From an uncultured Lachnospiraceae bacterium (GTDB taxonomy: Bacteria > Bacillota > Clostridia > Lachnospirales > Lachnospiraceae), in NCBI GenBank assembly GCA_949738465.1, contig CATJBQ010000250.1, positions 1 through 64,000 on the forward strand: a stretch of 64,000 nt of DNA, written 5' to 3'. Of the stretch, positions 38,178-50,347 are shown piece after piece. The first letter of the stretch is position 1. The number at the start of each line of letters is the position of its first letter. The notes under the pieces were generated by a model, which worked only from the letters and a program-made list of their open reading frames with translations, did no database searches and was not told where the DNA came from. The position numbers were made by a program, and so were the translations under genes.

Positions 38178-38567
38178 CTATCTGCGCTGTTTGTCCTTAG
38201 GCACCACGCAGGTACCGCTGGCCCGGCATACCACAATGGGCTCCTTAAGCACATCGCAGGCGGAATCATTCAGATCCGGCCTGGGCGCAATCACCTTGCG
38301 GGCCTCGAACTTCATCTTGCGGGAAGTATTGCCCACGCTGACAATCTCTCCCACCGCTTCGATGTAATCGCCTGCAAAAACCGGCGCCAGAAACTCCACC
38401 TCGTCATATGCCTTGAACAATCCTTCATCTCCATCCTGAAGAATCAAAAGCTCCGTCGCCACATCGCCGAACAACTGCAGCATTCTGGCTCCATCCACCA
38501 GATTCCCGCCGTAGTGCGCGTCGTGGGCGCTCATCCGCAAGCGGATGATTGATTTTTTTGTCTCCAT
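38178..38567 (-). CDS. kal: 3-aminobutyryl-CoA ammonia-lyase
   Basis: 129 residues with a hotdog fold. Removes ammonia from 3-aminobutyryl-CoA to give crotonyl-CoA, which then enters the butyrate pathway. Family pattern [59 protein letters not shown] and [12 protein letters not shown]. It is first in kal-kce-kdd-kamA-kamD-kamE, directly behind a leader of about 450 nt that holds a lysine riboswitch. An AAGGAGG box is 12 nt before the ATG, a little far. Confidence 0.95.
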
Positions 38568-38665
38568 TAACGTTATAAACCTCCTTCTCGGAAAACTTGT
38601 TCAGAGTTTTTCCTGTTTATATAACCCCGTCTCCGGGTGGTTACCATGTGGTTACTGTATAAGGT

Positions 38666-38718
38666 AAAAAAAGACGCCATTCCACCGCATGCCAAAAATT
38701 CCAAACGGTACAATAGCG
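38666..38718 (-). terminator. Second terminator-like hairpin (T2) in the kal leader
   Basis: Minus strand CGCTATTGTACCG (38718 to 38706) pairs with CGGTGGAATGGCG (38687 to 38675): 13 positions with one mismatch and two G-U pairs. The loop is 18 nt and TCTTTTTTT follows (38666-38672). Its 5' arm lies in the second exact copy of the aptamer P1 strand (38711-38725). Weaker than T1 because of the loop and mismatch. Confidence 0.5.
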
Positions 38719-38766
38719 CTCCATGTTCCATGTAGAACAATAATCCCGCATAGATAAGTCTCGTAT

Positions 38767-38817
38767 AAAAAACAAATGCTATCGACACTCACAAGCCCTC
38801 CTGTGAATATCAATAGC
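38767..38817 (-). terminator. Terminator (T1) overlapping riboswitch helix P1
   Basis: Minus strand GCTATTGATATTCACA (38817 to 38802) pairs with TGTGAGTGTCGATAGC (38793 to 38778): 16 pairs including several G-U. The loop is 8 nt and ATTTGTTTTTT follows. The first part of its 5' arm, GCTATTG, is also the 3' strand of aptamer helix P1, so the two helices cannot coexist. Confidence 0.75.
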
Positions 38818-38979
38818 GCTCCATGCGAACATGACAGGACAGTGGTGCTGAACCACTCACCCCAAGAATACATCCCCATCACCAGATCTATTCTTTCGGC
38901 AGGATATGCATTCTGCACCGGCATCCGACATGACAATCGTTCCCATCCGGCGTGTACCTCATAACCTGCACCTCTATTG
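38811..38979 (-). ncRNA. Lysine riboswitch (L box) upstream of the lysine fermentation operon
   Basis: On the minus strand P1 forms between CAATAG (38979 to 38974), followed by AGGTGCAG, and CTATTG (38816 to 38811), preceded by GGAGCG. Lysine-aptamer landmarks occur in order: AGAGGTGCAG, GGATGGGAA, CTGCCGAA, CTTGGGGTGAG and CACTGTC, then GGAGCGCTATTG. The 169-nt length agrees with the family and with the second copy in this window (50150-50316). It lies between a good promoter and kal. Lysine riboswitches normally repress; here the overlap of P1 with terminator T1 predicts activation by lysine. Confidence 0.88.
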
Positions 38980-39021
38980 TCTCTCTATGTAGTTGTCAAT
39001 GTCATCGCTCCATCTACGTTC

Positions 39022-39050
39022 ATCATACTACCCATTGAATCTTTCGTCAA
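39022..39050 (-). promoter_or_regulatory. Promoter of the kal-kce-kdd-kamADE operon
   Basis: Minus strand TTGACG, exactly 17 nt, TATGAT. Transcription would start near 39015, about 35 nt before the lysine aptamer, giving a leader of about 450 nt. Confidence 0.75.
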
Positions 39051-39261: not shown

Positions 39262-40860
39262 CTATCTGTCTGCCGTAATCCGCTTGATCACAAACAAGGT
39301 TCCAAGGGTAAGGATAATTCCTGCACCCAGGGAGATAATAACATTCTGCGCAAATCCCGCTATGATAAAGCTGACGAAGGAAATTACCGCAACCGTCACC
39401 GCATACGGAATCTGGGTGGAAACATGGTTCAAATGATTGCACTGTGCTCCGGCCGAGGACATAATCGTCGTATCGGAAATCGGTGAGCAGTGGTCGCCGC
39501 AAACCGCGCCGGCCAGACAGGCTGACATACCGATGGCGCCCAGGGGGCTTCCGATCGGGAATACATTGAGGACGATCGGGATCAGGATTCCGAAGGTTCC
39601 CCAAGAGGTACCCGTTGAAAATGCAATCAGGCAGGCAACAATGAAGATGATGGCCGGCAGGAAGTTATTCAACGATCCCGCATTATCCAGCGCCGCCTTT
39701 ACAAAAGCGGAAGAATCCAGCAGATTGGTCACGTTCTTTAAGGAGGTTGCCAGGGTAAGGATCAGGATCGCAGGCACCATGGCGATAAAGCCCTTGGGAA
39801 TGCATTCCATAGCTTCCTTGAAGGTAACCAGTCTTCTTGCCACAAAATAAATGATTACAATTACCAATGCGATAATACCGCCCCAGGGAAGGCCCATGGT
39901 GGCGTCTGTGTTAGCAAATGCGTCTACCAGGCCGATGGAACCGTCATAATCAGCGCCCATGCCTCTTCCGACATAAACCAGCGCAACAATACAAAGTACA
40001 ATCAGCACTATAATGGGAATAACAAGGTCGAACACCCGGCTTCTGCCCTTGGAGGACGCGCTTTCTTCCTCATCGTCTCCCACGCGTTCGCCAGTGGTGA
40101 ACAGGTCTCCCTTTTCCGCGTTCTTCTCATGCAGCTTCATGGGGCCATAGTCAAACTTCATAAGGACAAGACCGATAATGAACACGAAGGTCAGCAGAGA
40201 ATAAAAGTTGTAGGGGATCGCCTGGATAAACAGAGTAATCCCGTTGGTTCCCTCCGGTGTAAAGGAAGAAACTGCCGCCGCCCAGGAGGAAACAGGCGCG
40301 ATCATACAGATCGGAGCCGCCGTGGCATCGATTAAGTACGCAAGCTTTGACCGGGAAATTCTGGGCTTTTCCGTCACCGGACCCACAACCGCCCCACCCG
40401 GCAGGCGGTTGAAGTAATCGTCAACGAAAATAAGGACACCCAGGGCAAAGGTCGCAAGGGAAGCTCCCACCTTCGTCTTCACATGCTTAGATGCCCATTC
40501 GCCGAAAGCCCTCGAACCGCCGGCCTTGTTCAGCAAAGCCACAATAATGCCCAGAAATACCAAAAATGCAAAAATACCCGCGCTGCCGGATACGGCCGGC
40601 ACAATACCTTCTCCCACAACCGCGTCTACCGTGTGGATCGGATTGAAGTTGCTGGACAAAAGACCGCCCACCAGGACACCGATAAACAGGGAGGAATAGG
40701 CTTCCTTTGTTATCAGCGCCAGTCCGATCGCCACAACTGGCGGGAACAGCGACCATAAGGTCCCCACAGGGCTCGTAATGGAACCCGTGAATGCGCAGAT
40801 AATAGCGAAAATAACAATAAACGCTATTATCGCAATCTTAGAGATGATTTTTTTGCTCAT
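39262..40860 (-). CDS. NhaC-superfamily Na+/H+ antiporter, candidate LysW-type lysine transporter
   Basis: 532 residues with about 11-12 membrane helices. Characteristic NhaC segments: EAYSSLFIGVLVGGLLSSNF, FVDDYFNRLPGGAVVGPVTE, KLAYLIDATAAPICMIAPVS, FSTGTSWGTFGILIPIVLNV and CSPISDTTIMSSAGAQCNHL. The NhaC superfamily includes LysW, a predicted lysine transporter. Lying directly upstream of the lysine fermentation operon, with its own promoter and terminator, makes lysine import a reasonable role. Simple Na+/H+ exchange cannot be excluded. Start at ATG 40860 behind GAGAAAGGGGA. Confidence 0.85.
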   Translation of the reverse strand: MSKKIISKIAIIAFIVIFAIICAFTGSITSPVGTLWSLFPPVVAIGLALITKEAYSSLFIGVLVGGLLSSNFNPIHTVDAVVGEGIVPAVSGSAGIFAFLVFLGIIVALLNKAGGSRAFGEWASKHVKTKVGASLATFALGVLIFVDDYFNRLPGGAVVGPVTEKPRISRSKLAYLIDATAAPICMIAPVSSWAAAVSSFTPEGTNGITLFIQAIPYNFYSLLTFVFIIGLVLMKFDYGPMKLHEKNAEKGDLFTTGERVGDDEEESASSKGRSRVFDLVIPIIVLIVLCIVALVYVGRGMGADYDGSIGLVDAFANTDATMGLPWGGIIALVIVIIYFVARRLVTFKEAMECIPKGFIAMVPAILILTLATSLKNVTNLLDSSAFVKAALDNAGSLNNFLPAIIFIVACLIAFSTGTSWGTFGILIPIVLNVFPIGSPLGAIGMSACLAGAVCGDHCSPISDTTIMSSAGAQCNHLNHVSTQIPYAVTVAVISFVSFIIAGFAQNVIISLGAGIILTLGTLFVIKRITADR

Positions 40861-40925
40861 AAAAATCCCCTTTCTCCAAACACATTTGTTTTATAAAATT
40901 TTTAGAAAAAACTCTGAACAATTTT

Positions 40926-41045: not shown

Positions 41046-41092
41046 CTATAGCGTTCAGAGTTTTTCCATCCAAAAAAATTTTGGAGGTTTTT

Positions 41093-41932
41093 ATGGATTG
41101 GAATGCAGGTATATGGTCAATTATACCACCGATTATTGCCATTATTTTGGCGCTTCTCACCAAGGAGGTTGTATTCTCCCTGATTCTTGTATCCTGTCGG
41201 GTACTGTGATTTATTCCGTGATGACCGGTTTTGGCTTCATGGGAATCTTTGACGCTTTTGTAACCCTGATGAGCGTCAAGCTTTCCCGGAAGGCTGGCCT
41301 ACAGCATCGACGCTACCGCTGCGCCGGTCTGCATTATCGCCCCCATTTCTTCCTAGGCGGCCTCTGTGATTTCCTATTATCCGGAAAATGCCGAAAGCGG
41401 CATGGCGGCTTTCTTAAGCTCCATTCCCATGAACCTGTACGCAGTGCTGACCCTGTTTATGGTGTTCTGGATGGCCCTTAAGAAGAATTCCGAGTACGGC
41501 CCCATGGCAAAAGCAGAGCTGCAGGCTGCCACCACCGGCGAGCTGGGCGCCATCGACAGCAGCGAGGCCGAGGATGAATTCAACAAGGTAACCAAGAAGA
41601 ATTCCAACGGGCGCGTGTCCGACCTGGTGATCCCCATTGTAGTGCTGATTGTGCTGTCCATTCTTTCCATGCTTTTTGTGGGCGGCTCCTGGGACGGAAC
41701 CGGAAAATCCCTCTTTGATGCCTTCGGCGACACCGATACCGGCTACGCCCTGGCGCTCAGCGCATTCATGACGTTGAGCGTTACGTTTATTTACTATCTG
41801 CTGCGCCGTGTGCTCAACTTCAAGGAATACTTCGGGTGCATCAACCAGGGGGTAAAATCCATGGTTCCCGCCTGCGTGATCCTGCCCAGGGTATGGGGCG
41901 TAGACAAGATTCTGGATAAAACTGCGGCTTAA
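41093..41932 (+). pseudogene. Broken NhaC-superfamily antiporter, divergent paralogue
   Basis: Starts with a good site and MDWNAGIWSIIPPIIAIILA, LLTKEVVFSLILVS, then a TGA after about 38 codons. A large section is missing: the next homologous piece, AYSIDATAAPVCIIAPIS, is in another frame near 41300 and ends at a TAG. It continues in the open stretch from about 41366 (NLYAVLTLFMVFWMALKKNS, VSDLVIPIVVLIVLSILSML). The C-terminal third, with the conserved TGTSWG and SDTT motifs, is absent and the frame ends at 41932. Two stops, a frame change and internal and terminal deletions make function very unlikely. Confidence 0.85.
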
Positions 41933-48297: not shown

Positions 48298-49059
48298 TTA
48301 TCTGGCCGCGATCACGTCCTGCATATTGTAATAGCCCGCCGGCTTCCCCGCCAGGAACTTGGCCGCTTCGATCGCTCCCTTGGCAAACACGCCCTTGGAA
48401 TATGACGTATGGGTAAAGCTGATCACTTCATCCGGCCCGGCGAAAATCACTTCATGCTCCCCGACAATGCTGCCTCCCCGCACGGGATGAATCCCGATCT
48501 CATGCTTGTCCCTCTTTTTCCGCTCACCGGTTCTGTCGTACTGATAGCAGTAGTCTTCCTCCAGGGCTTCGTTCAACGCCTCTGCCAGGACCAGCGCTGT
48601 CCCGCTGGGCGCGTCCACCTTCTGGTTATGGTGCTTCTCCACGATCTCCATATCAAAGCCGGCAGGCGCCAGGATCCGGGCTGCCTTTTTCAGAAGCTCC
48701 AGCAGCATATTGATTCCCAGGGACATGTTGGCGGATTTTAAGACCGCCACCTTGCCGGACGCCTCCGTCACCGCTTCCTCCTGCTGGCGGCTTAAGCCGG
48801 TGGTGCACAAAACCACCGGAACCTTCCGCTCCACGCTGTAGGCCAGCAGCTCCTCCACTGCCCCGGCCGTGGCAAAGTCTATGATCACATCCGCCTCCAC
48901 ATCGCATTCTCCGATGGATGAAAACCGGGGATATTCATTCCGGATATGATCGGAAATATCCACCCCGGCTACAATCTCAATCTCCGCATCCTCCCGGCAC
49001 AGTCCCGTCACCACCTGCCCCATCTTTCCGTTGCATCCGTGCATAATCGCTCGTATCAT
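48298..49059 (-). CDS. dapB: 4-hydroxy-tetrahydrodipicolinate reductase
   Basis: 253 residues. NAD(P)H-dependent reduction in the lysine/diaminopimelate pathway. Nucleotide-binding GCNGKMGQVVTGLC at the N-terminus, VIIDFATAGAVEELL, VVLCTTGLSRQQEEAV, the catalytic His/Lys region EIVEKHHNQKVDAPSGTAL and IGIHPVRGGSIVGEHEVIF. Cotranscribed behind dapA (gap 21 nt), so under control of the lysine riboswitch at 50150-50316. Confidence 0.96.
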   Translation of the reverse strand: MIRAIMHGCNGKMGQVVTGLCREDAEIEIVAGVDISDHIRNEYPRFSSIGECDVEADVIIDFATAGAVEELLAYSVERKVPVVLCTTGLSRQQEEAVTEASGKVAVLKSANMSLGINMLLELLKKAARILAPAGFDMEIVEKHHNQKVDAPSGTALVLAEALNEALEEDYCYQYDRTGERKKRDKHEIGIHPVRGGSIVGEHEVIFAGPDEVISFTHTSYSKGVFAKGAIEAAKFLAGKPAGYYNMQDVIAAR

Positions 49060-50097: not shown

Positions 50098-50149
50098 GGA
50101 AATCCACACGAGAAACAGGGCATACCCTGCCTCCTGCTGATTCATCCCC

Positions 50150-50316
50150 GATAGCGCCCCACCCGAAAAACAGGTGACAGTCACAGAATTGTTCACTCTG
50201 TGCCCAAGCAGCCTCATCACAGGAAAATCAGCCCTTTCGGCGCTCTCCCCTTTTGCCTGTTCTCTCCTGCTCCTGCCGCATCAAATAAGCTACTCATGAA
50301 TCGCGCAACCTCTACC
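50150..50316 (-). ncRNA. Lysine riboswitch (L box) upstream of dapA-dapB
   Basis: P1 forms on the minus strand between GGTAG (50316 to 50312) and CTATC (50154 to 50150). Aptamer landmarks are very clear: GGTAGAGGTTGCGCG, CATGAGTAGC, GGGGAGAGCGCCGAAAGGG, TGCTTGGGCACAGAG, TGTGACTGTCACC and GGGGCGCTATC. Length 167 nt. In front of biosynthetic dapA the known behaviour of the class is repression when lysine is high. Confidence 0.93.
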
Positions 50317-50347
50317 CGATTATTCTCTTTTCAAACGAACTAAAAAT

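What the first reader, a model, noticed from the sequence alone, without database searches (positions are those of the whole stretch)
38666..39050. Lysine riboswitch wired as a probable ON switch for lysine fermentation genes
Seen: a lysine aptamer (38811-38979) behind a TTGACG-17-TATGAT promoter. Its P1 3' strand GCTATTG is also the 5' arm of a 16-bp terminator with a U-tract (38767-38817). Known: in studied lysine riboswitches, forming P1 frees the terminator, so lysine represses. Inferred: here forming P1 dismantles the terminator, so lysine should permit transcription. That is the sensible logic for a catabolic operon, and lysine-activated examples appear rare.
Basis: partly seen in the sequence, partly recalled or inferred. 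Interest (0 to 1): 0.92.

Follow-up and report, generated by a model that had tools for sequence, protein, structure and literature searches.

The report
Lysine ON-switch with repeated closing strand
A lysine-sensing RNA in front of lysine-eating genes is built to switch them on when lysine is present, as was already predicted for such genes, but here and in relatives two or even three stop signals in a row each begin with a copy of the sensor's own closing strand, so one sensor could be asked about lysine more than once.

Summary
A lysine aptamer (RF00168, 61.7 bits, P1 to P1 at 38979-38811, minus strand) sits behind a conserved promoter and ahead of kal-kce-kdd-kamA-kamD-kamE. Its P1 3' strand is also the 5' arm of a strong terminator, T1. 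ON logic is strongly supported: 66 of 75 kal leaders carry this mutually exclusive P1/terminator layout, against 7 of 32 control lysine aptamers. It is not new, because positive control of kal genes by lysine riboswitches is already in the literature. The finding missed a second terminator, T2 (38719-38674), whose 5' arm starts with an exact copy of the aptamer's 3' strand (38725-38711). Such copies recur in 20 leaders from several families, one of them with three terminators. In all 17 second terminators found without using the motif whose 5' arm contains CTRT, P5 3'-strand and J5/1-like bases precede it at fixed positions. The copy covaries with the P1 5' strand. Energies favour re-closing the aptamer on the copy over a relay. 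My reading is a lysine ON switch whose single aptamer is re-closable and can be consulted at each terminator. The anatomy is shown; lysine response and strand exchange are inferred.

The parts
39022..39050 (-). sigma-70-type promoter TTGACG-17-TATGAT
   Evidence: same spacing in L089, L090, L091 and L092
38806..38984 (-). lysine riboswitch aptamer (P1 to P1 = 38979-38811)
   Evidence: RF00168, 61.7 bits
38974..38980 (-). P1 5' strand ACAATAG (a)
   Evidence: pairs with CTATTG 38816-38811 (6 bp) or with CTATTGT 38716-38710 (7 bp)
38811..38825 (-). first closing strand CATGGAGCGCTATTG: P5 3' strand, J5/1, P1 3' strand (b); CTATTG is shared with the T1 5' arm
38778..38817 (-). terminator T1 hairpin; U-tract follows to 38767
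38711..38725 (-). second closing strand CATGGAGCGCTATTG (b'), exact copy 100 nt downstream
   Evidence: conserved in congeners
38674..38719 (-). terminator T2 hairpin; U-tract 38672-38666
38178..38567 (-). kal, 3-aminobutyryl-CoA ammonia-lyase
   Evidence: NF052388
37335..38165 (-). kce, 3-keto-5-aminohexanoate cleavage enzyme
   Evidence: NF052387
36239..37291 (-). kdd, 3,5-diaminohexanoate dehydrogenase
   Evidence: NF052381
34929..36230 (-). kamA, lysine 2,3-aminomutase
   Evidence: TIGR03820
33297..34868 (-). kamD, lysine 5,6-aminomutase alpha
   Evidence: NF052384
32508..33296 (-). kamE, lysine 5,6-aminomutase beta
   Evidence: NF052385

Best explanation
This is a transcriptional ON lysine riboswitch for lysine fermentation with two terminators in series and one re-closable aptamer. 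Without lysine, T1 forms and stops transcription, and polymerases that escape meet T2. With lysine, the aptamer closes on its first 3' strand (P1) and takes away the lower half of the T1 5' arm. Once polymerase has passed T1, the copy of the closing strand (b') is transcribed. The lysine-bound aptamer can re-close on b' (P1', 7 bp), with T1 left behind as a harmless hairpin, and this blocks T2. A polymerase that leaks through T1 gets a second lysine test by the same route. Shown: the parts, their mutual exclusivity, their conservation and their recurrence. Inferred: the lysine response, the strand exchange and the second test.
For: P1 and T1 share CTATTG and T1 is a strong terminator. The layout is found in 66 of 75 kal leaders against 7 of 32 control aptamers, mostly weak ones. 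Extra copies of the closing strand: 13 of 42 kal leaders against 0.04 expected from shuffles and 0 of 36 controls; 20 leaders with copy plus second terminator after wider sampling, one with three copies and three terminators (L132). Found without the motif, all 17 second terminators whose 5' arm contains CTRT have RTG at -8 to -6 and G at -3, the aptamer's P5 3' strand and J5/1. Within the genus ATGRAGCGCTATTGTRCC is conserved in an unalignable spacer. P1 5' strand and b' covary (14 unique pairs, 83 base pairs against 77.1 shuffled, p 0.002; P1 itself as control p 0.006), for example C-G in the window's genus and G-C in L168-L171. With the aptamer held closed, T1 + P1' beats P1 + T2 in 9 of 11 leaders (-2.4 kcal/mol in the window).
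Against: No lysine-binding or termination data exist for this RNA. Without a ligand term the energy model prefers T1+T2 by 9.0 kcal/mol over re-closure in the window, so ligand, tertiary contacts or kinetics must pay. In L092 and L008 the P1 + T2 state is slightly better. P1' is only 4-5 bp in several leaders (L014, L191, L008, L020, L046, L193, L213). Covariation rests on few independent events and the shuffles ignore relatedness. L006 and L124 keep a copy without a recognisable T2.
Confidence: 0.58

Rival explanations
1. Relay: with lysine, P1 forms on the first strand, the freed T1 3' arm (CGATAGC) pairs with b' and so prevents T2; without lysine T1 and T2 both form. Also ON, but the aptamer never re-closes.
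For: The T1 3' arm is complementary to b' in most leaders, e.g. 7 bp in the window and 8 or more in L089-L091 and L016.
Against: P1 + relay is less stable than P1 + T2 in 10 of 11 leaders (+7.8 kcal/mol in the window). It does not explain conserved P5 3'-strand and J5/1-like bases in the copy. In the window's genus and in L168-L171, bases of b' that differ from b improve pairing with the P1 5' strand and break pairing with the T1 3' arm (read by eye).
Confidence: 0.15
2. Plain backup: T2 arose by duplication of the T1 module, adds constitutive termination to cut leak, and is not lysine-controlled; only T1 is the ON switch.
For: Simplest origin; 16 of 33 leaders with a strong second hairpin did not show a copy in it.
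Against: A strong unregulated T2 (-22.4 kcal/mol) would also block expression in lysine. The copy's RTG and J5/1 bases are kept although they mostly lie outside the T2 stem. P1 5' strand and copy covary.
Confidence: 0.17
3. OFF switch as in biosynthetic lysine riboswitches: lysine promotes termination through an antiterminator not recognised here.
For: All experimentally studied lysine riboswitches known to me repress.
Against: P1 and T1 share the same strand, so P1 cannot free T1; the layout is general in kal leaders and not in controls; the genes are catabolic.
Confidence: 0.04
4. The aptamer senses another ligand of the pathway (e.g. beta-lysine) rather than lysine; the switch logic is the same.
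For: P2 deviates from the consensus sarcin-ricin motif.
Against: The junction strings AGAGG, GCCGAA, UGGG, CUGUCA and GGAG.GCUA are intact.
Confidence: 0.06

Closest known systems
Lysine riboswitches upstream of kal/kce (Clostridium sticklandii, Fusobacterium nucleatum, Thermoanaerobacter), PMC5584792; ON logic noted in PMC2258182
   Same: Same aptamer class, same genes, positive control predicted.
   Different: No serial terminators with copied closing strands are described in the passages read; the original 2003 paper was not in the library.
Bc1 c-di-GMP-I riboswitch of Bacillus thuringiensis with dual terminator (PMC11218506)
   Same: One aptamer followed by two terminators 28 bp apart; ligand unfolds both.
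   Different: Different ligand and fold; the passages read do not describe copies of the aptamer's own strand in the terminators.
Pseudo-cooperative tandem riboswitches (PMC9481103), including 14 double lysine riboswitches
   Same: Two terminators in series answering to one ligand.
   Different: They have two complete aptamers; here only the 3' closing strand is repeated (100 nt apart, one aptamer hit).
pbuE-type adenine ON riboswitch (own knowledge)
   Same: Terminator 5' arm overlaps the P1 3' strand; ligand closes P1 and prevents termination.
   Different: One terminator; purine aptamer.
dapA-dapB lysine riboswitch of the same window (50144-50322, -)
   Same: Same aptamer class, 100.1 bits.
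   Different: Biosynthetic genes, downstream terminator, no copy of the closing strand.

Membership tests
Lysine riboswitch (RF00168) | Covariance-model score above the gathering score | tested here: met
   61.7 bits against 30 over the full model 1-182
Lysine riboswitch (RF00168) | Conserved junction strings (AGAGG, GCCGAA, UGGG, CUGUCA, GGAG.GCUA) | tested here: met
   alignment
Lysine riboswitch (RF00168) | Sarcin-ricin motif AGUA/GAA in P2 | tested here: inconclusive
   window reads AGGUA / GAAUG with a 2-nt deletion against the consensus; congeners share the form
Lysine riboswitch (RF00168) | Binds lysine | not testable with these tools
   needs in-line probing or similar
ON transcriptional riboswitch (P1/terminator exclusive) | Terminator 5' arm includes the P1 3' strand, with a U-tract | tested here: met
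   conserved in relatives
ON transcriptional riboswitch (P1/terminator exclusive) | Ligand raises read-through | not testable with these tools
   needs a transcription assay
Tandem (pseudo-cooperative) lysine riboswitch | Two complete aptamers | tested here: not met
   one RF00168 hit in the leader; copies lie 52-113 nt apart, too close for a 170-nt aptamer

The most novel reading that the evidence does not exclude
One aptamer with two or three interchangeable 3' closing strands, each built into its own terminator, so the same ligand-binding core is re-formed and re-read at successive checkpoints during transcription: a serially interrogated riboswitch that sharpens ON control without a second aptamer.
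Probability: 0.5. Interest if true: 0.78.

Novelty: new variant of a known kind. Interest (0 to 1): 0.6.

Why it matters
ON lysine riboswitches were predicted long ago; this gives a large comparative case (66 of 75 kal leaders with mutually exclusive P1 and terminator) and ready templates to test. If the repeated closing strand works as proposed, it is a cheap way to get serial ligand checks from one aptamer, natural in gut clostridia, and a simple design rule for low-leak ON switches. The window also holds an opposite-sense pair: an OFF-type dapA aptamer and an ON-type kal aptamer about 11 kb apart.

Tried and rejected
A fast Rfam scan of the whole window missed the aptamer; a local scan recovered it. 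A motif regex first missed aptamers with variant J5/1 (L124, L132); looser patterns and Rfam scans fixed this. The first energy run handled the no-T2 state wrongly, because forbidding pairs blocked the bases, and its no-T2 figures were replaced (superseded). The first hairpin finder printed nothing (replaced). The relay model was my first favourite and was demoted by energies, by conservation of J5/1-like bases in the copy, and by covariation. A second complete aptamer was rejected by spacing and scan. Simple tandem duplication in this genome alone was rejected, because congeners keep the copy with a sequence differing from their own first strand. Literature searches for one aptamer with two terminators found only Bc1.

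Full report
Observation. The minus strand carries a lysine aptamer at 38979-38811. A fast whole-window Rfam scan reported only a second lysine aptamer at 50322-50144, but a local scan gives RF00168 at 38984-38806 with 61.7 bits, E 1.1e-15, and the genome search agrees. The junction strings are intact; the P2 sarcin-ricin region deviates. The promoter TTGACG-17-TATGAT is conserved with the same spacing in the four congeners that have this leader. The genes downstream are kal, kce, kdd, kamA, kamD and kamE, each above an NCBIfam cut-off.

First terminator. T1 (38817-38778) is an 18-pair hairpin of -26.1 kcal/mol, z -7.1 against shuffles, followed by a U-tract. The P1 3' strand CTATTG is inside its 5' arm. 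P1 and complete T1 therefore cannot coexist. With P1 formed, only the inner part of the hairpin remains, separated from the U-tract by about 12 nt. This is the direct ON layout.

How general it is. I collected kal leaders from named genomes and from family, order and other-family searches, identified aptamers by pattern and by Rfam, and looked for U-tract hairpins. Of 75 unique leaders, 66 have a terminator whose 5' arm starts at the P1 3' strand; of 32 usable control aptamers (lysine aptamers of the same genus or family, taken by highest score and not selected for kal), 7 do, mostly weak hairpins. This supports ON logic for kal leaders broadly.

Prior art. PMC5584792 states that kal-type genes are positively regulated by lysine riboswitches, and PMC2258182 that certain lysine riboswitches with ON logic bury pieces of terminator stems. 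The 2003 paper behind these statements was not held.

Second terminator. At 38725-38711 the sequence CATGGAGCGCTATTG repeats the aptamer's 3' end (38825-38811) exactly, 100 nt downstream, and is the start of a second terminator, T2 (38719-38674, -22.4 kcal/mol, z -5.4, U-tract to 38666). The repeated piece is P5 3' strand, J5/1 and P1 3' strand.

Recurrence. In the first sample 13 of 42 unique kal leaders have a downstream match to RTGRWGNNCTAT; shuffles expect 0.04 and 0 of 36 control aptamers have one. Wider sampling gives 20 leaders with copy and second terminator, including the window's genus, other members of its family, the family of an Oscillospiraceae genome (L046) and the family of a Christensenella genome (L014). 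L132 has three closing strands and three terminators in a row. To avoid choosing by the motif, I took the strongest second terminator in every leader; of 33, 17 have CTRT in the 5' arm, and all 17 have RTG at -8 to -6 and G at -3. The remaining 16 are mostly clostridial leaders with an independent second hairpin, plus leaders where the strongest hairpin was a different one (L016, L046, L132). Within the genus the block ATGRAGCGCTATTGTRCC stands in an otherwise unalignable spacer.

Mechanism. Three readings of the copy were compared: (a) re-closure, where the P1 5' strand pairs with the copy; (b) relay, where the T1 3' arm pairs with the copy; (c) plain backup. Energies with the aptamer held closed put T1 + P1' below P1 + T2 in 9 of 11 leaders (window: -2.4 kcal/mol), and P1 + relay above P1 + T2 in 10 of 11 (window: +7.8). 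The P1 5' strand and the copy covary across 14 unique pairs (83 base pairs against 77.1 in shuffles, p 0.002; P1 itself p 0.006). In L168-L171 the sixth pair is G-C where the window's genus has C-G, and in the window's genus b' gains a seventh pair with the P1 5' strand; in both cases the change costs a pair with the T1 3' arm. Plain backup does not explain the conserved RTG and J5/1 bases. I therefore favour re-closure, with the caveat that shuffles ignore relatedness and the number of independent changes is small.

What is not shown. Lysine binding, read-through and strand exchange are all inferred. Without a ligand term, T1 + T2 is preferred by 9.0 kcal/mol over re-closure in the window; the comparable gap at T1 is 14.7 kcal/mol, so the ligand, tertiary contacts and timing must matter at both points. 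Two leaders (L006, L124) keep a copy without a terminator.

Known relatives. One aptamer with two terminators is described for Bc1, a c-di-GMP riboswitch, whose authors call a dual terminator in a single platform rarely seen (PMC11218506). Pseudo-cooperative tandem riboswitches have full second aptamers (PMC9481103). I found no description of terminators that each carry a copy of the aptamer's closing strand, but the library lacks most subscription papers.

Verdict. Observation confirmed, ON logic supported and already predicted, platform more elaborate than described. New variant of a known kind.

Noticed in passing
window 50144-50322 (-): Second lysine aptamer (100.1 bits) upstream of dapA (49081-) and dapB (48298-49059), a normal biosynthetic arrangement about 11 kb from the kal switch.
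   Followed up: partly
window 38598-38612 (-), 40906-40920 (+), 41052-41066 (-): Motif GAAAAACTCTGAACA three times (expected 0.07): in the kal leader and twice in the intergenic region above the NhaC-like antiporter; also in L089-L091 kal leaders. Possible operator.
   Followed up: partly
window 41098-41932 (+): Frame-broken NhaC/Tet35-like antiporter reading frames; L089 and L091 have an apparently open version diverging from kal. Looks like a decayed gene next to a complete antiporter at 39262-40860 (-).
   Followed up: partly
L006 and L124, between kal and kce: Another genus has one lysine aptamer before kal and another before kce; the pre-kce one of L006 also has a direct ON terminator.
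   Followed up: no
L022, L164, L165 (Fusobacterium-type kal leaders): A CTATTTT-type second closing strand pairs 8-10 bp with the P1 5' strand and lies in the 3' arm of a terminator or near the ribosome-binding site.
   Followed up: no
L007, L009, L011, L015, L031 (clostridial kal leaders): The P1 3' strand pairs in a hairpin often lacking a strong U-tract, followed by an independent terminator; possibly a different ON platform.
   Followed up: no
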